Source of the DNA: Anniella stebbinsi
Taxonomy: Eukaryota > Chordata > Lepidosauria > Squamata > Anniellidae
NCBI GenBank assembly: GCA_029215795.1
Contig: JARDYH010000007.1
Coordinates: forward strand, 82,533,763-82,597,762
DNA: 64,000 nt
Direction: 5' to 3'
Part shown: one piece after another, positions 16,125 through 32,388 of the stretch
Position numbering within the stretch: position 1 is the first letter of the stretch
Layout: every line of letters starts with the position of its first letter
The notes under the pieces: generated by a model
The model's input: the letters and a program-made list of their open reading frames with translations, nothing else
Told to the model about the DNA's origin: nothing
Databases searched by the model: none
Made by a program: the position numbers and the translations under genes

Positions 16125-16200
16125 TTACTTGGAGATGCCGGGATCGAACCTGGGACCTTCTGCATTCAAAACAGGTGCTCTGCCACTGAGCTATGCCTCC
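16125..16200 (-). repeat. tRNA-derived SINE head
   Basis: The minus strand reads GGAGGCATAGCTCAGTGGCA ... GGTTCGATCCCGGCATCTCC, with intact A- and B-box-like promoters. The acceptor stem does not pair fully, and relatives are dispersed at 13555, 37085, 44985, 53790 and 56447. I therefore call it a SINE rather than a functional tRNA gene. Confidence 0.65.
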
Positions 16201-17600: not shown

Positions 17601-17779
17601 TAAATTTTTTAATGAGACTTCAAAGAGCATTAAACCTCTCGTGAAGAGGCACCCTGAGGCTCAGGGTCAGCATCAGATATTCAAAGTGGGGGCGGGGGGA
17701 GGAATGGGATACAGGGCGCCATTTTAATTTCCCATAATGCTCCAGAGCAAGGCTATGTTGGGTGCTGTGGACCCAATGT

Positions 17780-18099
17780 TAGGGTGACCAGATAAAATCC
17801 AGGTCAGGGCTCATGTAACTTTAACAGTTGTAGAGAAAAGGAAATTTCAGCCAGTGTCATTTGTATGCAATTAGTTCCTGGTGAAATTCCCTCTTCATCA
17901 CAACAGTTAAAGTTGCAGGGGCCCTGCCTTCTTTTGTATCTGGTCACTCTAGTATAGTGCCTGCACCTTTAACTGTTGTGAGGAAGAGGGAATTTCACCA
18001 GGAACTAATGGCATACAAATGACACTGGCTGAAATTCCCTTTTCTCTACAACTGTTAAAGTTACATGTGCCCTGACCTGGATTTTATCTGGACACCCTA
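17780..18099. mobile_element. hAT-type palindromic MITE, copy 1
   Basis: A 320-bp element with ends TAGGGTGACCAGATA and TATCTGGACACCCTA. The whole element is a long inverted repeat (TTTAACAGTTGTAGAGAAAA and its inverse). It is flanked by the 8-bp duplication CCCAATGT at 17772-17779 and 18100-18107. The 8-bp duplication is the hAT signature. Confidence 0.9.
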
Positions 18100-18593
18100 C
18101 CCAATGTAGACGGGGGGGCTTCTGTGGGCCTCCTCAAACCCCTTGGCTGGTCTGTGCACTCGCCCTCTCTTTTTGTCAGGCAGCAATGACTGCAGGCATC
18201 TCAACTGCCCCTCATGGCTGGCTGAATACATTTGCCGCCTGAGGTTAATGATGTGATGATGCTCCTGTCCCTGCCTTTCCAGGTAGAGAAGCAGACCAGA
18301 GTGGTAGCTGAACATTATTTCAACAGCACACTTGAGGTCAGCAGGATACCTAAGGGGTAGAGAATGCAAGGCAGGCAGCGTGGCATATACAGCTCTGTCC
18401 TCCAACAGCTCATGACTGCTCGCCGCCCCTCAGCTCCTGCTGCCTGGGGCAGCTGCCTCACGATGCCTAAGGGTAGGGCCGGCCTTGCGTCTAATGCAGT
18501 TTAACGGGGTATAAGATTGTCCCTTTCTCCCCGTCTGCTTGCTTGAAAAAAGAGCCAACTTTTCCCAATCCGCTCCACTCTCTCAGGGGCAGT

Positions 18594-18833: not shown

Positions 18834-19261
18834 GGTGACACATCAAACAAATGAGACAATTATTTACAAAGACAATTCAGCAGGAATCATAAGGGAGAGT
18901 CGCTTCCACCCAAACGCCACTGTGCAACACTGCCCATCCCACCCTTGGCCAGGAATGGAATAATATCCTATTCCTAAAAGAGCGCCAGGAAGGATCCATG
19001 TTGGCACAATTTCTCTGTACTCATGCTCATAAAGGCCAGGCTTTGCTGGCTTAGGGGCATGATTCATGTTTAGATGCATGTGTGTTAGGTGCTACAAATC
19101 AGGGACTCATGCAGCGTACAGTTAACAGTTGCTCCAGGCTGTTGCCTTGATCCTCTCCACCAAGAACAGGTCTTTTGTAAAGTTATTTATTCTGAATTGC
19201 CCATTTAATTCCAGATCAAACCCCCACAAATACTTTGCATTAAAACAGGGAACAATATACT

Positions 19262-19582
19262 TAGGGTGACCAGATAAAATCCAGGTCAGGGCTCATGTAA
19301 CTTTAACAGTTGTAGAGAAAAGGGAATTTCAGCCAGTGTCATTTGTATGCAGTTAGTTCCTGGTGAAATTCCCTCTTCATCACAACTGTTAAAAGTTGCA
19401 GGGGCCCTGCCTTCTTTTGTATATGGTCACTCTAGTATAGTGCCTGCCCCTGTAACTGTTGTGATGAAGAGGGAATTTCACCAGCAACTAATTGCATACA
19501 AATGACACTGGCTGAAATTCCCTTTTCTCTACAACTGTTAAAGTTACATGAGCCCTGACCTGGATTTTATCTGGTCAGCCGA
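19262..19582. mobile_element. hAT-type palindromic MITE, copy 2
   Basis: A 321-bp sibling of copy 1, flanked by the 8-bp duplication AATATACT at 19254-19261 and 19583-19590. The right end reads TATCTGGTCAGCCGA, diverged at its tip. Confidence 0.9.
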
Positions 19583-20459
19583 AATATACTGTTGTTAAAA
19601 AAATGCATTCAGAAGGAACAGGGAAGTCTATGGGGGATGGCAGATGATGTCAGCAACCCTGCTAATAAAGCAGTGCTGGTGTGGCGTCCCTGTAAACTGT
19701 GGCTCAAGTACACCACTGAACCCAACAGAAATGCGCTGGCTTCTTAGAGGGTGAATGTCCCCTATCTAAACCACAGAAACTGAAGGGGTATGAACTCGTT
19801 TCCATCACTATCCCATGCATCAGATATGGATCTGATATAGGCAAGCTCACATAGTCCTATCCCTACCCCCCTAGGATCAAAGGCTGTTCTTGGACAATGG
19901 GCCAAGGGGTGTGTGAGATGGTCCGTGCTAAAGATCAGGTATAAAAAAGAATCTGCTAGACTTGCTGGAACCAGGGGCTCAGCTCAGCCTTTCGTCTTTC
20001 CAACCCAAACAGAAAGAAAACAGAGCCAAGCGGAGAATCTTAAAGACGCCTGTGGATTTTTCCACCTGCAGTATCAACTCCATCTCCACACCTCCCATCC
20101 CTGTTGGAAGAGGGGAGACGTTGCCCTAAAGAGCTCCCTATGGAGGCAATGTGCATAGTTTGGGCCATTGTGGAGCAATCTTCAAAGGGAGATGAGAGCG
20201 AGACTGCTGAATTAGAATCCATCCACAGGTTTAATTCTATCACCAGAGGCTTGAATCGGGATAAAGGATTTTTATCACATCCCATGTTAATTGGCTTACC
20301 TATGGACAGGATGTTTGTGCTTTTAGCAACAGCTGCACTATAAATGACCACTAATAGTACTTCCTTGTCACTCTTGGTACTTTCTGCATTTCGTTTCCTT
20401 CTGACCTCAGTGTATACAACTCTGTTACCACCACCATGTGTACTGCTGTGTAAAAATCT

Positions 20460-21210: not shown

Positions 21211-21665
21211 GCCTTCCCCAGTCTGGTGCCTTCCAGATGTGTTGGACTACAATTCCCATATCCCAATAGGGTGACCAGATAAAATCCAGGTCAGGGCTCG
21301 TGTAACTTTTAACAATTGTAGAGAAAAGGGAATTTCAGCCAGTGTCATTTGTATGCAGTTAGTTCCTGGTGAAATTCCCTCTTCATCACAACAGTTAAAG
21401 TTGCAGGGGCCCTGCCTTCTTTTATATATGGTCACTCTAGTATAGTGCCTGCAACTTTAACTGCTGTGAGGAAGAGGGAATTTCACCAGGAACTAATGGC
21501 ATACAAATGACACCGGCTGAAATTCCCTTTTCTCTACAACTGTTAAAGTTACATGTGCCCTGACCTGGATTTTATCTGGTCACCCTACCCACTAACCATG
21601 CTGCTTGGGGCTGATGGGGATTGTACTCCAACACAGCTGCAGGGCAGCAGGTTGTGGAAGGCCTG
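21211..21665. repeat. ACTACAATTCCCAT MITE split by hAT MITE copy 3
   Basis: The left half (CTTCCCCAGTCTGGTGCCTT, then GGACTACAATTCCCAT) lies at 21211-21266. The right half (TGATGGGGATTGTACTCCAA, then AGGTTGTGGAAGGCC) lies after 21595. The hAT MITE sits between them. Confidence 0.75.
21267..21587. mobile_element. hAT-type palindromic MITE, copy 3
   Basis: A 321-bp copy with ends TAGGGTGACCAGATA and TATCTGGTCACCCTA. The flanks TATCCCAA and CCCACTAA do not form a clean 8-bp duplication. It is nested in an older MITE. Confidence 0.85.
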
Positions 21666-24242: not shown

Positions 24243-24283
24243 CAATCTACACCAAGCAGGATATAGCACTATGAAAGCGGTAT
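24243..24283 (+). repeat. MITE, left part (split by the retrovirus)
   Basis: The terminal inverted repeat ATCTACACCAAGCAGGATAT, then AGCACTATGAAAG, matches the inverse of 32525-32566. The provirus inserted in this MITE. The rest lies at 32389-32566. Confidence 0.8.
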
Positions 24284-24820
24284 TGTGACATGAAATTAAG
24301 AAGAAAAAAAATTAATTAATGTTTGCCTCTCTGCCCTGAAACCCCCAAATCCTCTAGCAGGGCAGATGGTCTTAAGTATCGGCAAGTACCTGTGATTTAC
24401 AGACAATAGATCAATATCGAGGTGACAAGTAGTTAGCTTAATGAGAGGAGCTGGCAATTCAAAAGATGCTTTGCTTTGTTTCCAGTCGAGAGGCCTCCCG
24501 GCTATCTTTTCTCTGGAATGTTACGATTGACCTTGCTTTTTGCATTTCTGTAACTGCTTGCAATAGAAGCATTATTTCTTCTCCCCCTCCCCTATTTCTT
24601 AGTTGAAAGAAGTTTCTAGACACGTACGTCACAAGAGAGGTGTTTCTTTTCATGCCAAGAGAGTAAAAACCTTTGTCTATGTTGGTTAAGGGCGGTTCCT
24701 CTGTATTTTGGCCATGAGGCAACAGGGTTCCGTCTCAGCGCGCTGATTCTCTTTTAATAAAATCGAGTTGTACCTCCCTCCTTACTATCTGAGATTTATT
24801 TTAAGTAACTCCAGGTAACA
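24284..24820 (+). repeat. 5' LTR (537 bp)
   Basis: Starts TGTGACATGAAATTAAG and ends CTCCAGGTAACA. AATAAA near 24757 is the probable poly(A) signal. A TATA-like AGAGTAAAAACC lies about 95 bases upstream of it. Differences from the 3' LTR: C versus G near 24616 and A versus G near 24637. Confidence 0.95.
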
Positions 24821-24825
24821 TATCC

Positions 24826-24843
24826 TGGTGCCGTGACTCGGAT
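24826..24843 (+). other. primer binding site, tRNA-His type
   Basis: TGGTGCCGTGACTCGGAT lies five bases after the LTR and is complementary to the 3' end of tRNA-His (…CACGGCACCA). The same primer gives human HERV-H its name. Confidence 0.85.
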
Positions 24844-26030
24844 GGTCATTCCGGTGAATTACCTGCCCAATTGGCTTCAGCTGTGACAAGCAAGGCTTCC
24901 TGTTGCTGATGATCACACCTCATGGCGCCAACTGCATTTTTGCGGAGAGAGGACTGAGCGCCGGCTACTGGAGGCCAGCTGTACAGCAGCCAGGAACGGG
25001 TGAAAAAGGACGGGGTTTCTTTCTTTCTTTCTTTTTTCCTTCCTTAACCAGAACAAGACGCCGGCCGGCAGGTAACGTATGAAAAAGGGAGGCCTCCATA
25101 GAGAACAGGACTTAAGCCATCCTGTTGGACCGGGGGGAGGTTCTGGCTTAAACCTCATTACCCCGACGTGGTCCTGGAGAAAGGGTTTGGAAGTGTGATT
25201 GGTGAATGCGTGGATTGGTGGCTGAGACGGTTATCTGATAAGCAGAGACCCGAAAAACGAATGTGACTCTCCCTGGAGAGTGGGACCCTTGACTAACGCG
25301 TTTCCTTGTCCTGGAGACAGGCAAGGCCGTGAAAAAGGGGTACGTCTGGATTGTCTGTCCATACCTTTTTGTGTCAGCTGTGTGGACCCCTTACCACACG
25401 GCCTGGTTTCCCTTCCCTTGTGTTGCCTTGTTTGTATGGAAAGCGTGACGTCTCTGTGAAACTCATAATGGGTGGGAGAAACTCAAAGAAAACCCCAAAA
25501 ACCATATTGTAGTATATGGTAGAAAATCTAGAAATAGATTCAAGAGAGGGGTAGTTAATCTTGAAAGTGGATTCAAGAGAATGTAGAGAAGAGTTAGACC
25601 CACATGTATTGAGACGTTGTTTGTCAAATAGATCTGCCAAGTCAGAGTGATTTTTAGAAGGCAGAGGAGAGGTGTAACTTAGATAGAAGAAAATTTTAAG
25701 GAAGCCTACCAATCATTGTGAGTGTTCCACATCCTGATCAGTTCCTGTATCAATAGCCCACTAATTATCAAGAAATGCCAGCGTGTCTAAGAAATCCTTG
25801 TAAACAGGCATGCACCACAGCCAATTTGGTGATGCCAGTACAGTGAACGCCTAAAAGAGGAAAAAAGCCTTAAAGGCAGAGGGCACCCGGATGAAGAGGT
25901 CCCTAGAGGCAGAGAGAAGAAAAGTGAGGGCACGCAAGTCAAGAAAAGAGTTAAAACTCCCCAGAGCCTTTGCCCAGGATGGGGAAGATGAATTGTCACC
26001 GCCACAGCCACCATATAGCCAGCTTTGCAA
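24844..26030 (+). other. proviral leader, no intact ORF
   Basis: Untranslated leader (GGCGCC at about 24923, pyrimidine tract near 25018-25050) followed by degraded sequence. No start of a recognisable gag matrix frame is visible. The packaging signal would be expected here but cannot be recognised by eye. Confidence 0.5.
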
Positions 26031-26175
26031 GCACCCCAACCAAGTCCATCAGCTTGTATCCAGTTGAAAAGAAAGACTCAGGCCAGTACAAACCAGTACA
26101 TGATCTACGCGCTGTGAACTCTAGAGTAGAACCATTGACTCCACTGGTTGAGGACCCTTCCTCAACAGACTGCCA
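26030..26175 (+). pseudogene. reverse transcriptase fingers fragment, displaced
   Basis: The frame gives SLYPVEKKDSGQYKPVHDLR followed by AVNSRVEPLTPLV, which matches the gammaretroviral RT segment of the type VKKPGT-x-YRPVQDLR-x-VN. Only about 45 residues are recognisable, and the catalytic YVDD region does not follow. It lies about 1.1 kb upstream of the gag capsid remnant, the reverse of normal gene order, so a deletion or rearrangement is implied. Confidence 0.7.
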
Positions 26176-27195
26176 CCTGACATGCAATGGCACAATGTCC
26201 TAGCAGATTTGTGTGCAAAGAGAGCAGCACGAGAGATGGTCCCAGGCTTTTATCCCAAAGCCTGTATGTATACAAGCTTCACCAGTGCAGACACGCCAGT
26301 CTACAAAAAGGCTTAACCAGCCGAGTCTTCAAGCCCTATGGGCTGAAGAGAAAAATGAAAGCAGGGAGCCAGGGAAACGTCTCCAGAGTAAGGAGACGGA
26401 CCTGCAGAGAGAGCAGGCCCAGTAAATGTATGCAGTTTATGTATACAAAGGATGAAGAGGCATTGCAGCGGGCAATGGCTTCTCCCCTGGTTCGAGATGG
26501 CGTGCAAAGAAGCAGGGACAGGGACCCAGAAAGAGAGATGATGTCAGAACTCCAGTATGGCAATGAAAGCAGCGCGGATGGCAGACCGATTGAGTGCTTT
26601 GGCAAAGAGGAAGCAGATCGGGAGCCGAGGAGAGAGGTGAAGAGTCAGTGCCCCCATTGAGCTGAATCCAGCGAAGTAGGCAGCGCGACCAATGCTCAGA
26701 AACTAAGCTGCAAAGTGAGAGGTGTTTTTATGGCAAAGTAATAAAAAACTCTCAAACGAGATTGTTCAAAGTTAGCAGCTGAGAATCCCCCCCTGACCAG
26801 AGCATTGATAGAAGCGGCAACGGCTGTCCTCATTAGCATTCCTCCAACTGAAGCGATGTCAGCTGAGGAGAAGTAAAGGTATGCAGACGCGAGAGCAGGG
26901 GCTGGAAGACAAGAGTTTTCCCGATGACTGCGTCCTTTTGAAGCCCTGCATGGCGTGTATAACTATGTAGTTTGGAAAGTGGCAAGGTGATGCTGAGATC
27001 CAATTTTGCCATCCCCTCAAACAATGTTCCATCCGGCCCGACGCCCCACTGGTTGCTGAGTCACCAGAAGCTACTCAAACTAGCGCCCCAGCGTTTTCAC
27101 GGCCAACGCACTCAGAGAGGAAAAGTTGAAACTTGTGCTTTAAGTAACATTAAAGGTACAAGAGTGGCGGGACCCAGTTCCCATAGATCTCAATG
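26176..27195 (+). other. degraded proviral interior
   Basis: Purine-rich sequence with short frames (157 codons at 26187-26660). No recognisable retroviral domain. It may derive from gag matrix/p12 or from pol, or be recombined sequence. Confidence 0.45.
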
Positions 27196-27199
27196 TGAT

Positions 27200-27710
27200 G
27201 ATCCCCAGATGGAATGTCACAGAAATCACTGACTGAAGTCCCCATACAAATGGCTGATTTGTGGGAAAATGTCATAAACACGTATAGTCCCACATGGCAA
27301 GACCTAAGAGTCTTAGAAAGCCCTCTGTATGGTACAGAAGAGAGAGGGCGCCTACATCAGGCCATAGGGCAAGAACTGAGAGATCTAGCAGCTGCAGATG
27401 AGACACGTAGGATCCCCAATGAGACCCTCATAATGTGAACCATGAGTAGAGGCGTCAAGAGTTGTGCCAATTGACCACAAGAGAGATTCGGAGAGCAGCC
27501 AGGAAAGCTATGAATGTAGCTGAAGTGATGCAGGGTCCAAAAGAATCCCCAAGGGCTTTTATGGAAGGACTAAAAGAAGCCTATCGACAATACTCCCCAG
27601 TGGACCCAGATGAGGCTGCCAACAGACGTACAGTGAACATGTCCCTTGTGAGTCAAGCTACAGAGACATACAGGAAGAAACTCCAGAAATGTGAGAGAGT
27701 TTAAGATAGA
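27200..27710 (+). pseudogene. gag capsid remnant
   Basis: Two consecutive frames carry capsid-like sequence. 27214-27438 has MADLWENVINTYSPTWQDLR and GTEERGRLHQAIG, like the CA N-domain. 27462-27704 has VMQGPKESPRAFMEGLKEAY and ETYRKKLQKCE, like the major homology region and CA C-domain of gammaretroviruses. A stop and frame change separate them. No clear CCHC nucleocapsid zinc finger follows. Confidence 0.75.
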
Positions 27711-28955
27711 AGCCCAGACATGCAGTTTAAAAGTCAGAAAATAAAAAGGCAGAGAAAGTAGCAAGCAGAAGGGAATATAGACGAAGGAAAAGTCGATGTA
27801 AAGACTGTGAAGACAGTGGCAACTCCCTAAGACCACGGCGACTCCTTGAGAGACAAGAGATGAATGCAGACCAAGAGGAATTGGATTTTGGCTATAGGAG
27901 AAAAGGCGAGAAGTTTAGCAAACTTCAGTGTGGCAAGAGATGAAAGTGAAAAGAAAGAAAAAGACACAGCCCAAGACTTCAGAAGCACAGGGGCCAGATG
28001 CTACAAAAATTGTTCCCCATCAGACTCGAAGGTCTGAAGAGGCTCTAGGTGCCAAAAAAGAGGGGAAAATTAGACAGTGAAAGGTCTAATCAACAAGTTG
28101 AGCAACTGAAGCCCAGAAAGGAGCAAACGCAGTAAGGAAGCAATCTATGCTGGCAACAAAAATCATGACGTGAGGAAGATCCCTGGTTGTGATCCTGAGC
28201 CTGTCGAGAAATTACAACCCCAAGCCAAGAATGCTAAAGCATTAGAAAAGCCAGTTTTGCTAAAAGAATCAAGATTAAAGCTATAGAGTCAAGTTGCAAA
28301 CCCCACTTGTGTAGAAAAAGCAACTTGAGAGGAAAATGCAGACTGTTTGCTTGAATTCCTTTAAGGTGGACCAGGAGTAATGGGATTACTCAAAGGTTTT
28401 CCAGGTCTGTCTGCTCCTTGGCAAAATAAAGCAATAGAAAGAAAGAAGGCAGGGGGAGGGAGCAGAAAGAGTTAAAGCCTTGAGCTGGAGCAGAGTCTGC
28501 CAGAGAAGAGCGTTTAACCTTACCCCCCATTGAAAGCAATAAGAAGAAACGATACAGAGAAATTTAAGGAGGACTGACAGAATTAGCATAAACATACTGC
28601 CTGCAAGGCATAGTTTTGGAAGTCATAGTGCCAGGGCTTACGAGATAAGAAAGTCCAAAAGGACAAGCCCTGTCAGAAGCTGTGACCCTAAACGCGAAAA
28701 GTAGCAGTAATGTATTGTCTGATACTGCTAAGTAAAACCAGAAGGCTGAGCCCAAGAGGAAGAGCTAATTCTGTACACACCAGTCCTGCAAACTCAAGAA
28801 CCTCCAAGCAAGACTGACCTTTGAGAGAGACAGAGGTTTCGAGTTCGAGGTCCCACACGAAGGAGATGTCTGTACAGTATTCATGCCAAACATGGATGGC
28901 AGTATAAGCTGTTATGGGAAAGAAGTGGCCAGCCGATAGCCATTATGCCCCCCAT
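27711..28955 (+). other. degraded gag 3'/pol sequence
   Basis: Basic, lysine- and arginine-rich short frames (27780-28250) may be remnants of nucleocapsid or protease. There are many stops and no catalytic motif is visible. The RT palm with YxDD appears to be missing. Confidence 0.4.
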
Positions 28956-28959
28956 GATT

Positions 28960-29360
28960 GAATTGACAGATGTTCCAGAGAGTGTGTGGATCCCAGAGAG
29001 AAGATGGGAAACGAGCCCTGTTGCCAGAGCAAGTGCAAGCAATTTGTAATATTGCACCACCCACCACAAGGCGAGGACTGAGAGCCTTCTTAGGAATGGT
29101 GGGTTACTGTCGGCTCTGGATCATAGATTATGCTACACATGAGCAGCCACTCTACAAAGCAACGGAAGGGAAAGACACAGACCATGTTTATCTGGGGCAC
29201 AGAGCAACAAAGAGGCTTTGAAGAATTAAAGCATCAGCTAGCACATGGACCCAACCTGTCCAAACCCTTCCAATTATATGTTACAGAGAAGAGAGAAATC
29301 AAAGCAAATCCTCACACCAGAGACAGGAGAGATTGGGGAGCCGAAAATAGCTGACAGGAG
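28960..29360 (+). pseudogene. RT thumb/connection remnant
   Basis: Frames at 28970-29221 and 29130-29354 carry APPTTRRGLRAFLGMVGYCR followed by LWI, then a GFEELKHQLAHGPNLSKPFQ-like segment. This matches the gammaretroviral region after the RT palm (…[20 protein letters not shown]…). A frame change near 29190 breaks it. The RNase H active site is not seen. Confidence 0.75.
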
Positions 29361-29699
29361 ACTCTAGTGAAGACGCTCCAGAGAAATACACCCACGGGCT
29401 CCCACTACAGCTGAACTCAGAAGCGCACCCGTTGATAGTGTGAGAGACAATGAGGTCTCTAAAGCATTGAGTGGAGACTGCAAGTTGAGAAAAATAAACT
29501 GAACTACTGGAGACCTACTGACTAGAGTTTGCTGTTGCCATAGATATTGTTCAGGATGCCAAACACTCCCAAGGGAAAAGAGTAAATGGACCTCCTTTTG
29601 AGGCCATGTAGGTGGGCCCTCCCCGTTGTGGAGAAAATGTGGCGGTAGTTAAGATGCCCCAAGAGAGGTAGTCCCATGGGCAAAGTGCATTGTAGAGGT

Positions 29700-29980
29700 A
29701 AGGAAGAACTTAAACTAGAAGGTGCCTTACCTCTTACAGATAAAGTACATAATATAGAGCCAGGAGACTGGGTTTATGTGAAAAAGTGGAAAACAGATTC
29801 TTAAAAACCAAGATGGTCAGGCCCACACCAAGTAATGCTGGTTACTCCAACTGCTATTAAATGTTTTGGTTTTAAATCCTGGACACATTACAGCAGAGCA
29901 AAACGTGCTGAGGCACCGGGACTGTGGAAGGCCAGCCCAGTGAAGGGAACTCTAAGGGTTAAACTGAAGAAATCTTAAAG
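29700..29980 (+). pseudogene. integrase C-terminal domain remnant
   Basis: The frame gives LPLTDKVHNIEPGDWVYVKK, then a stop, then KPRWSGPHQVMLVTPTAIK and a short tail ending near 29976. This is the SH3-like C-terminal domain of gammaretroviral integrase, normally just upstream of env. The catalytic core (DDE) is absent. Confidence 0.8.
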
Positions 29981-30158
29981 CATCTGTCTGACCCAAGCGA
30001 CCCCCCCTTACCGAGAGCTGACACTCTGTGGAGAGAGAGAGAAAGAAAAGAGCTTCAGCTCAAAGGAGCTGTCACATCCGGAAGCTGACAGCCTCCTCTG
30101 ACGAAGAATCCAACAAAGGATTTCTACGCTATTGGACTATCTGAATGAACTCTATGTC

Positions 30159-30317
30159 ATGATTGATGGGCCACTGATTATAGTCTTGATTATAGCATTA
30201 GCTGTAATTAGAATAACGATAGTGTGTTGTTTCAGACCAGAACAGTTTCTTGGCAGATCTCGCCAAAATGTGCTCCCTCTTTTGGTTATTAACCCTGATA
30301 GCCATATGTTTGAGTAA
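30159..30317 (+). CDS. small hydrophobic ORF overlapping the env start
   Basis: The first ATG in this frame is at 30159. The peptide is about 52 codons, with one strongly hydrophobic segment (LIIVLIIALAVIRITIVCC) followed by a basic stretch. It overlaps the env start in another frame. A splice-acceptor-like TTGTTTCAG ends at about 30238 inside it. It may be a chance frame in an env leader. No family is recognised. Confidence 0.25.
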   Translation: MIDGPLIIVLIIALAVIRITIVCCFRPEQFLGRSRQNVLPLLVINPDSHMFE

Positions 30318-31641
30318 ATCTGTAGAAAAAGAAGAGCCCAATCTATGGATTCAAATCGTGAAGCAAACTGCAGCAGTACTCAATAATAATAAATCTTGTG
30401 TAATCTGTGCACTGACTCCCAAATCTCACCAAGATGGACTTCCGTTTTTGCCCACCCCCCTTAACAGAACAGGGATTGTAGCAGATTGGGGGTTTCAAGA
30501 GGTGCCCTTCAAATATGCACACTATAATTCCAGCGGAGCCCTCAAAGTAGTTCCTTTGCCGGGACAAATCTGCATTTCACAGAATGGTTCTGAGATATTC
30601 GTAGGCCAGTCAGAATGTCAGGAGACTTGGTATTCTGACCAAGTAGCCCCCAGAGAAGGAACCTGGAACTGTAGCAACCTGAAAAGAGTGCCTTTTAAAT
30701 ATTGTGGCTGCTCTTTGGGTGAAGAATGGATGCATACTTGGGGGAGGAACTGCACCCACTACGGAAGTGGGGTCCGTATGGAAAGGCCTGCCTCGATGTT
30801 TTCCCTGACCCTCGCTCTCCTTCTGTCCAGAAACAAAGGACATAGACACCACTTGTGGTGGATTTGCGGAGAATGGGCTTTCAAACAATTACCTAAAAAT
30901 TGGAAAGGAAGTTGTTATTTGGGAATTGTAGTTCCAGGATTGTGGATGATTTCCCCTGACACTTCCCCTGACATCTATAAGAGAGAAAAGAGATCTTTGG
31001 ATCTAAAAAGCATAGCTGGAGGAGGAAATCAGAAATGGGGAAGTGAAGAATGGCCGGCTGAGCGAATAGTTGAGTGGATAGGTCCTGCTACCTGGGAATC
31101 TAATGTGGGTGGCAGAACCAGCCACTATTTGACAAATAGACTCATACGGTTACAAGCAGTAGTGGAAATCATGGCAAATCACACAGCTGATGCTTTAGAT
31201 TTGATCGCCACTCAACTAACTCAGCTCAGGACGGCCACTTTACAATTAAAATTGGGATTAGATTATGTATTGGCAGTGCAAGGCGGTCTTTGTGTTGCCC
31301 TAAATTTTTCTGACTGTTGTTTTCAAATAGATGACAATGGAGAAGTTATAAAAAGCTTAGCAAAAAACATAAAGGAAGTAGCTCATGTGCCAGTCCAGGA
31401 TTGGAATGGATGGAGTTTTGATTGGATCACATCATGGCTTCCAAATCTTAGATGGCTTAAAACCGCATTTTTGGTATTTTGCTTGGTTGTGATTCTAATT
31501 TGCATTTTGCCTTGCTGTATCCCGTGTTTCATGGCTTTAGTAACACGAATAGTGAATTCCATTGTAGAACGCAAAATATATTCTCATTATGTATCATTAG
31601 CTATGCAAGATGATGTAACACATGAAGAAGTAGAAAAGTAG
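30268..31641 (+). CDS. env: retroviral envelope glycoprotein, uninterrupted (457 codons)
   Basis: The frame is open back to a TTG at 30250, but the first ATG is at 30268 and begins a signal peptide (CSLFWLLTLIAICL). Visible features, numbered from that ATG: a CVIC (CXXC) motif at about 44-47 in the surface subunit; several N-glycosylation sequons; a furin-type REKR site at about 239-242; an immunosuppressive-like segment; a CX7CC motif near 342-351; a membrane anchor near 398-418; and a cytoplasmic tail of about 35 residues. This is the gammaretrovirus-like surface/transmembrane plan, but short. The residues after REKR are polar and glycine-rich, not the expected hydrophobic fusion peptide. 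No stop or frameshift interrupts it, unlike gag and pol. Fusion ability cannot be judged. Confidence 0.85.
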   Translation: MCSLFWLLTLIAICLSKSVEKEEPNLWIQIVKQTAAVLNNNKSCVICALTPKSHQDGLPFLPTPLNRTGIVADWGFQEVPFKYAHYNSSGALKVVPLPGQICISQNGSEIFVGQSECQETWYSDQVAPREGTWNCSNLKRVPFKYCGCSLGEEWMHTWGRNCTHYGSGVRMERPASMFSLTLALLLSRNKGHRHHLWWICGEWAFKQLPKNWKGSCYLGIVVPGLWMISPDTSPDIYKREKRSLDLKSIAGGGNQKWGSEEWPAERIVEWIGPATWESNVGGRTSHYLTNRLIRLQAVVEIMANHTADALDLIATQLTQLRTATLQLKLGLDYVLAVQGGLCVALNFSDCCFQIDDNGEVIKSLAKNIKEVAHVPVQDWNGWSFDWITSWLPNLRWLKTAFLVFCLVVILICILPCCIPCFMALVTRIVNSIVERKIYSHYVSLAMQDDVTHEEVEK

Positions 31642-31835
31642 ACATAGTTAAGAATGTATCTAATTTCTGTTTTGCACTCTACACATGCTCTAAACCCTGC
31701 TAGCAGCTTTAGAGGCACAAAAAACAATGAATGACTATAGACAAGATGAATGTAACTAACAGTGATTTTTTTTTTCTGTAACCTTATGTTTCTTAAGTAT
31801 AGTAAAGAACCAATGCAAAGATAAGATTAGTTCTT

Positions 31836-31847
31836 TAAAGAGGGGAA
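31836..31847 (+). other. polypurine tract
   Basis: AAAGAGGGGAA lies immediately before the 3' LTR TG. It is the expected plus-strand primer. Confidence 0.8.
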
Positions 31848-32384
31848 TGTGACATGAAATTAAGAAGAAAAAAAATTAATTAATGTTTGCCTCTCTGCCC
31901 TGAAACCCCCAAATCCTCTAGCAGGGCAGATGGTCTTAAGTATCGGCAAGTACCTGTGATTTACAGACAATAGATCAATATCGAGGTGACAAGTAGTTAG
32001 CTTAATGAGAGGAGCTGGCAATTCAAAAGATGCTTTGCTTTGTTTCCAGTCGAGAGGCCTCCCGGCTATCTTTTCTCTGGAATGTTACGATTGACCTTGC
32101 TTTTTGCATTTCTGTAACTGCTTGCAATAGAAGCATTATTTCTTCTCCCCCTCCCCTATTTCTTAGTTGAAAGAAGTTTGTAGACACGTACGTCACAAGA
32201 GGGGTGTTTCTTTTCATGCCAAGAGAGTAAAAACCTTTGTCTATGTTGGTTAAGGGCGGTTCCTCTGTATTTTGGCCATGAGGCAACAGGGTTCCGTCTC
32301 AGCGCGCTGATTCTCTTTTAATAAAATCGAGTTGTACCTCCCTCCTTACTATCTGAGATTTATTTTAAGTAACTCCAGGTAACA
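31848..32384 (+). repeat. 3' LTR (537 bp)
   Basis: 535 of 537 positions match the 5' LTR by direct reading. Ends …AGGTAACA, followed by the GTAT duplication. Confidence 0.95.
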
Positions 32385-32388
32385 GTAT

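What the first reader, a model, noticed from the sequence alone, without database searches (positions are those of the whole stretch)
24284..32384. Young provirus with near-identical LTRs and open env but scrambled gag-pol
The two 537-bp LTRs differ at only two positions and the GTAT target duplication is intact, so insertion was recent. Env is uninterrupted, yet gag and pol are reduced to short broken fragments. That much decay cannot have happened after insertion. The element was therefore copied in a defective state, presumably helped in trans, while env stayed open. This may be a non-autonomous family that keeps env under selection.
Basis: partly seen in the sequence, partly recalled or inferred. 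Interest (0 to 1): 0.78.

Follow-up and report, generated by a model that had tools for sequence, protein, structure and literature searches.

The report
Helper-dependent provirus with swapped envelope gene
This is a young copy of a crippled retrovirus family whose broken core genes were probably copied with the help of more complete relatives in the same genome, and whose still-open envelope gene seems to have been swapped in by recombination.

Summary
The 537-bp LTRs differ at two positions, the target duplication GTAT is intact, env (457 codons from its ATG) is open, and gag-pol is a set of short fragments in scrambled order. The decay predates insertion: all 17 siblings fetched with two LTRs carry the same RT-to-integrase fusion, 16 of 18 copies (window included) have an exact 4-bp duplication, and LTR pairs differ at 0-4 sites. 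Helper-type relatives exist in the same genome: nine copies by pol sequence, one read in full (open gag and env, pol in two frames, same PBS and PPT).

Env shows strong purifying selection (dN/dS about 0.1 between window and other copies); gag and RT fragments do not. But env and core have separate histories: window and L012 differ by 1.75% in the core yet by 20% at synonymous env sites. Env lineages interleave with helper copies, 21 of 40 scored core matches have no listed env match nearby, and 13 of 27 scrambled copies have a broken env. The non-autonomous family is confirmed; "the family keeps env under selection" is not shown. Import from a replicating pool explains most of it; signals within env groups found only on scrambled copies leave in-family selection open.

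The parts
24280..24283 (.). 4-bp target-site duplication GTAT, left copy
24284..24820 (+). 5' LTR, 537 bp, TG...CA ends
24826..24843 (+). primer binding site; identical in 17 of 17 siblings, in L029 and in helper-type L030, not found exactly in L031 (tRNA-His is my recollection, not shown)
25333..26054 (+). decayed 5' part of gag, in pieces, matching residues 1-243 of the L030 gag piece
26045..26202 (+). displaced reverse-transcriptase fragment, upstream of capsid
26194..26253 (+). displaced downstream pol fragment fused to the RT fragment at about 26202; the halves are 1.5 kb apart in L030
26252..26335 (+). gag fragment (residues 266-293 of the L030 gag piece)
26336..27222 (+). core segment without match to the L030 gag or pol pieces; includes part of a 157-codon open frame that shows no constraint
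27223..27722 (+). gag capsid fragments (Gag_p30), interrupted
27723..28792 (+). core segment without match to the L030 gag or pol pieces
28793..28989 (+). pol fragments (residues 97-163 of L030 pol piece 1)
28988..29347 (+). later RT / RNase H-like fragments (residues 399-521 of L030 pol piece 1)
29532..29975 (+). integrase C-terminal fragment (MLVIN_C), interrupted; no match to the integrase core
30268..31641 (+). open env, 457 codons; REKR furin-type site, CX7CC motif (meaning of the motifs recalled)
31837..31847 (+). polypurine tract before the 3' LTR
31848..32384 (+). 3' LTR, 537 bp, two mismatches to the 5' LTR
32385..32388 (.). 4-bp target-site duplication GTAT, right copy

Best explanation
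The element is one copy of a non-autonomous class I (gammaretrovirus-like) ERV lineage. Its core is a rearranged gag-pol in which capsid is interrupted and most of the RT and the integrase core are missing. Its RNA, which keeps LTRs, PBS and PPT, was most likely packaged, reverse-transcribed and integrated by proteins of more complete relatives that share those cis sequences. Template switching between co-packaged RNAs reshuffled cores and ends, so closely similar cores carry several env and LTR types or almost no env. The window copy joins a core nearly identical to that of the env-poor copy L031 with an env of a distinct type. Env is open because it came from a replicating pool in which env was constrained, and because the copy is young. 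Shown: shared defect, youth, helper-type sequence, mosaic structure, purifying selection on env. Inferred: mobilisation in trans, template switching, direction of env transfer.
For: Same RT-integrase junction in 17 of 17 paired-LTR siblings plus L029, L031, L052; 16 of 18 copies with exact 4-bp duplication, LTR differences 0-4. Helper-type: L030 with stop-to-stop pieces gag 628, pol 606 and 632 in two frames, env 473, LTRs 99.65% alike; 8 of 20 probes upstream of other env copies match L030 pol at 99.3-99.8%; 3 of 11 gag matches of 85% identity or more over 539 or more residues have no stop. Same PBS and PPT in window, 17 of 17 siblings, L029 and L030. Mosaic: window-L031 core 0.0-0.7% in six segments over 25400-28720, but 4.6-15.7% in the matched parts of the other segments; env dS 20% versus core 1.75% for window-L012, 25% versus 1.05% for window-L017. 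Six scrambled copies sit among the nine helper copies in one env clade (support 0.95), e.g. L046 with L043 (0.96), L050 with L044 and L045 (1.00). 21 of 40 scored core matches have no listed env match within 7 kb.
Against: No helper with every gene shown intact: L030 pol is in two frames, and only 601 bp of pol were read in the other eight. The window's env clade (5 copies, support 0.96) was found on scrambled copies only, so its donor is not identified. In it and in co-diverging groups there is a deficit of amino-acid changes: clade 9 N, 2 stop, 29 S (binomial P 1e-8); window-L022 5 N, 11 S (P 0.001, one stop in L022 left out); X-core 7 N, 4 stop, 10 S (P 0.049). No transcript or mobilisation data.
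Confidence: 0.7

Rival explanations
1. The scrambled lineage itself keeps env under selection: copies with working env reinfect the germ line or complement helper particles better, so env is the one gene this parasite maintains.
For: Env dN/dS 0.07-0.14 between window and eight other scrambled copies against N-rich change in gag CA (30 N+stop to 4 S) and RT (20 to 4) fragments. Shared env variants seen only on scrambled copies: 25 N, 3 stop, 52 S (omega about 0.21), against 4 seen only on helper copies, though 27 scrambled and 9 young helper copies were compared. The window's env clade, 5 of 5 on scrambled cores: 9 N, 2 stop, 29 S. X-core: 11 non-synonymous or stop sites, below what core variation predicts (Poisson P 0.00006 at the core mean 118 of 4208, 0.0097 at a rate of 0.020). 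Private changes counted within 26 scrambled copies alone: 25 N, 8 stop, 22 S, P 0.008.
Against: Env synonymous divergence is up to 24 times core divergence, so most of it arose before the two were joined. Copies with shared stops were transmitted (codons 154, 270, 382 in L015, L016, L025). 21 of 40 core matches lack a listed env match nearby. Changes private among all 36 copies and lying on scrambled ones are near neutral: 23 N, 7 stop, 16 S, P 0.13.
Confidence: 0.32
2. This env is a host-domesticated gene kept after insertion, syncytin-like.
For: Open frame, furin-type site, TM region similar to syncytin-2.
Against: Many young dispersed copies. Private changes in 27 scrambled copies (46) match the 47 expected from LTR divergence of 18 copies and are near neutral, with 7 stops against 3.5 expected. 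No conserved single locus shown or sought in other species.
Confidence: 0.03
3. The scrambled interior is an assembly artefact, or this copy decayed after insertion.
For: None found.
Against: Same junction in 20 other loci on several contigs, different target duplications.
Confidence: 0.01

Closest known systems
Bovine ERVK[2-1-LTR] C-type and D-type elements (PMC10924933; abstract, outline and passages seen)
   Same: More complete and defective copies of one ERV clade in one genome; defective copies mobilised in trans and numerous; one recombinant reported.
   Different: That is ERVK, and its D-type lacks all functional genes, env included; here 13 of 27 scrambled copies with env have it open at full length, and several env types sit on similar cores.
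CfERV-Fc1(a) of canids (PMC6407205; passages seen)
   Same: Gammaretrovirus-like, disruptive changes shared by several proviruses, spread by trans complementation proposed, seven intact env frames with average dN/dS 0.525, recombinants.
   Different: Here a fixed rearranged core with displaced pol pieces, lower env dN/dS, and a measured mismatch between env and core divergence.
recKoRV / PhER of koala (PMC10536682; passages seen)
   Same: A younger retrovirus recombined with an older degraded element.
   Different: In those passages the recombination is tied to degradation of env; here env is the part left open.
Env-less ERV 'superspreaders' (terms met in papers listed; concept recalled, no paper read)
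   Same: L031 has the core with almost no recognisable env.
   Different: The window copy keeps an open env; L031 also lacks intact gag-pol.
EAV-HP of chicken (PMC4607243 passages seen; loss of pol with env kept is recalled, not in those passages)
   Same: An avian ERV family discussed for its env and its recombination.
   Different: Alpharetrovirus; no scrambled core known to me.

Membership tests
Class I (gammaretrovirus-like) ERV | Gag_p30 capsid and TLV_coat env | tested here: met
Class I (gammaretrovirus-like) ERV | gag and pol in one frame separated by a stop, in a more complete relative | tested here: met
   L030: one TGA between the gag piece and the first pol piece
Class I (gammaretrovirus-like) ERV | TG...CA LTRs and 4-bp target duplication | tested here: met
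   18 of 18 LTR pairs TG...CA; 16 of 18 exact duplications, L016 and L024 not
Class I (gammaretrovirus-like) ERV | RT phylogeny | not tested
   no tree of pol was made
Non-autonomous ERV family mobilised in trans | Many young copies sharing one inactivating rearrangement | tested here: met
Non-autonomous ERV family mobilised in trans | Intact cis sequences (LTR, PBS, PPT) | tested here: met
   17 of 17 siblings; L031 lacks the exact PBS
Non-autonomous ERV family mobilised in trans | Helper with intact genes and shared cis sequences in the genome | tested here: inconclusive
   gag and env open, pol in two frames in L030; 3 of 11 close gag matches without stop; pol of the other helper-type copies not read in full
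Non-autonomous ERV family mobilised in trans | Observed mobilisation | not testable with these tools
   no pedigree or expression data
Domesticated env (syncytin-like) | Constraint after insertion | tested here: not met
   changes private among 36 copies, on scrambled copies: 23 N, 7 stop, 16 S, P 0.13; counted within 26 scrambled copies alone P is 0.008
Domesticated env (syncytin-like) | Orthologous locus conserved across species | not tested

The most novel reading that the evidence does not exclude
An env-only satellite of a retrovirus: a lineage that has lost gag-pol function and uses its helper's, yet maintains its own envelope by selection, so it would supply or compete for the entry step of the helper's particles. 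This would be the mirror image of env-less ERVs that spread without env.
Probability: 0.28. Interest if true: 0.75.

Novelty: new variant of a known kind. Interest (0 to 1): 0.5.

Why it matters
Helper-dependent ERV families are known, but this genome holds helper-type copies, env-bearing defectives and an env-poor defective form that share one core, with young LTR pairs in the copies read. It makes testable whether env is maintained in a replication-defective retroviral lineage or only borrowed, and it warns that an open env and a low dN/dS in a defective provirus need not mean that the defective family is under selection.

Tried and rejected
Post-insertion decay and assembly artefact: rejected by the siblings. 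Domesticated env: near-neutral private changes. L022 (9.9 kb) as the helper: rejected; it has the scrambled junction and an insertion of about 1.6 kb. The 157-codon leader frame (26187-26657): no constraint (26 N+stop to 10 S). RNase H-like piece 29172-29350: 5 N to 3 S, P 0.35, too few to say. Integrase C-terminal fragment as a control: it cannot serve the scrambled copies, yet shared variants looked constrained (omega 0.28; 11 N, 1 stop, 14 S without L031, P 0.005), which speaks for import of a block with its history; but 13 of 16 other rows carry an indel against the window, which disturbs the register, and pairs disagree (window-L012 8 N, 1 stop, 3 S; window-L017 11 N, 20 S), so I give it little weight. 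A first reading of six copies including L033 as the window's env clade was wrong: L033 branches outside, and the clade has five; the count over six (21 N, 2 stop, 41 S) is not used. tRNA-His as primer: the three places fetched held no tRNA gene; it stays a recollection. Rows dropped: L026-L028 (3 of 20 fetched) showed one LTR place only and were left out; L024 lacks most of env and was left out of the tree and the later env counts; L047-L049 served only as outgroups; sites with three or more alleles were skipped in the N/S counts.
Full report
What is there. The LTRs at 24284-24820 and 31848-32384 are 537 bp long and differ at two sites, and GTAT flanks the element on both sides. The PBS lies at 24826-24843 and the PPT ends at 31847. 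Env is open from ATG 30268 to 31641, matches TLV_coat and solved syncytin-2, and its nearest relative among 21 matches is an Alligator protein at 47% identity.

The interior is rearranged, not merely decayed. Against the protein pieces of a more complete relative (L030, below) the order is: gag 1-243, an RT piece (pol piece 1, 225-279), a downstream pol piece (pol piece 2, 227-246), gag 266-293, 0.9 kb without match, capsid (gag 335-516), 1.1 kb without match, pol piece 1 97-163, pol piece 1 399-521, 0.2 kb without match, and pol piece 2 485-632, followed by env. Comparison with solved structures shows independently that an RT piece precedes capsid. Most of the RT domain (232-402 of pol piece 1) and the integrase core (359-454 of pol piece 2) have no counterpart.

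Siblings. An LTR search of the window's own genome (1.89 Gb) scored 40 of 393 candidates. Of 20 stretches fetched, 17 hold two LTRs. All 17 contain the RT-to-integrase fusion, as do L029, L031 and L052; in L030 its two halves are 1.5 kb apart. Of the 18 copies including the window, 16 have an exact 4-bp duplication (not L016 and L024), and LTR pairs differ at 0-4 sites. The defect is therefore inherited and many separate insertions are recent.

Helper-type copies. L030 has, stop to stop, gag (628 codons: MA below its cut-off, CA), a TGA, pol in two overlapping frames of 606 and 632 codons (protease, RT, RNase H, integrase domains) and env (473 codons). Of 20 probes of 601 bp taken upstream of other env copies, 8 match L030 pol at 99.3-99.8%, 6 match the scrambled core, 1 matches both in part, 1 falls in an LTR and 4 match neither. 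Env has no stop in 8 of these 9 helper-type copies. A gag search (70 of 4781 candidates scored) gave 11 matches of 85% identity or more over at least 539 residues, 3 of them without stops. So intact single genes exist; a copy with every gene intact was not demonstrated. L030 shares PBS and PPT with the window.

Env in scrambled copies. Of 27 scrambled copies with most of env, 13 have it open at full length (L010 lacks six codons), and L051 is open with a 348-bp in-frame deletion; the other 13 carry stops, a large or frameshifting insertion, or lack the start. Copies were typed as scrambled by sequence or, for L032, L034, L035, L040, L042 and L046, by a core match beside env. Stops at codons 154, 270 and 382 are shared by L015, L016 and L025, and 270 and 382 also by L009, so broken env was transmitted.

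Selection. Variants were classed as synonymous or not and compared with random relocation of the same changes. Among the 13 scrambled copies with open env: 44 N, 84 S, omega about 0.21. Gag capsid fragments (28 N, 2 stop, 4 S) and RT (19 N, 1 stop, 4 S), from 17-20 copies, show no constraint; Fisher P for env against capsid is 1.2e-8. Pairwise, between the window and eight scrambled copies, dN/dS is 0.07-0.14. Over 36 copies (9 helper-type, 27 scrambled), changes private to one scrambled copy number 46 (23 N, 7 stop, 16 S; P 0.13), close to the 47 expected after insertion from LTR divergence of 18 copies. Counted within scrambled copies alone, private changes still lean to synonymous (25 N, 8 stop, 22 S in 26 copies, P 0.008; 13 N, 2 stop, 22 S in 18 copies), because some of them are shared with helper copies or are older than insertion. 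My reading is that constraint acted during replication and little at the resident loci.

Where did it act? For window and L012 the core differs by 1.75% and env by 20% at synonymous sites; for window and L017 by 1.05% and 25%. Env and core of these copies therefore have different histories. The window's core matches L031 at 0.0-0.7% over 25400-28720, while the matched parts of the other segments differ by 4.6-15.7%, and only the last 20 codons or so of env are recognisable in L031. Of 40 core matches scored (of 164 candidates), 19 have a listed env match within 7 kb and 21 do not; among the 20 most similar, 3 do. The env list scored 92 of 1215 candidates, and one of the 21 (L024) keeps an env remnant, so some absences are misses. 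In the env tree all nine helper copies sit in a clade of 15 (support 0.95) together with six scrambled ones, intermingled.

Evidence on the other side. The window's env clade (window, L014, L021, L022, L032; support 0.96) was found on scrambled cores only and is constrained: 9 N, 2 stop, 29 S, binomial P 1e-8. Of shared variants, 80 occur only on scrambled copies, 4 only on helper copies and 42 on both, with 27 and 9 copies compared. Where env and core diverged to a like degree there is a deficit as well: window-L022 (core 5.0%, env dS 3.8%) 5 N to 11 S, P 0.001; X-core (eight copies) 7 N, 4 stop, 10 S, P 0.049 by composition and 0.00006 against the mean variation of the core, 0.0097 against a rate of 0.020. 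Recombination within such groups is not excluded: segment divergences between the same two copies range from 0 to 10%, and an unsampled helper with the window's env type could have been the source. I put selection in the family itself at about 0.3.

Compared with what is known. Mobilisation in trans of defective ERVs alongside intact ones is described in cattle (PMC10924933: abstract, outline, passages) and proposed in canids with moderately constrained env (PMC6407205: passages). Env exchange and recombination with degraded elements are reviewed in PMC10536682 (passages). In the listings of searches I saw no title on an env-bearing scrambled family of this kind in a reptile; that is absence from those listings only.

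Noticed in passing
17779-18103, 19251-19593, 21267-21591: Three copies (95-97% alike) of a roughly 320-bp element that also matches its own reverse complement at 86-89%, a foldback or MITE-like repeat.
   Followed up: partly
G000 C3:17715505-17716542 (L051) and five other places: Six env copies appear to share an in-frame deletion of about 115 codons around the SU/TM boundary; five of six have no stop in either half. Only L051 was read.
   Followed up: partly
L031 (G000 C7:74346100-74354700): Scrambled core with different 499-bp LTRs (99.8% alike) and almost no env; core matches without a listed env nearby are numerous.
   Followed up: partly
G000 C2:366415568-366442723: Seven distant gag matches (35% identity, 370 open codons each) at an exact spacing of 4386 bases, a tandem array of a gag-bearing unit.
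   Followed up: no
G000 C5:163853846-164050281: Four related env matches with stops within 200 kb.
   Followed up: no
26336-27222 and 27723-28792: About 2 kb of the core matches neither the gag nor the pol pieces of L030; origin unknown.
   Followed up: partly
16130-16200: tRNA-Ser-like match on the minus strand, possibly a SINE.
   Followed up: no
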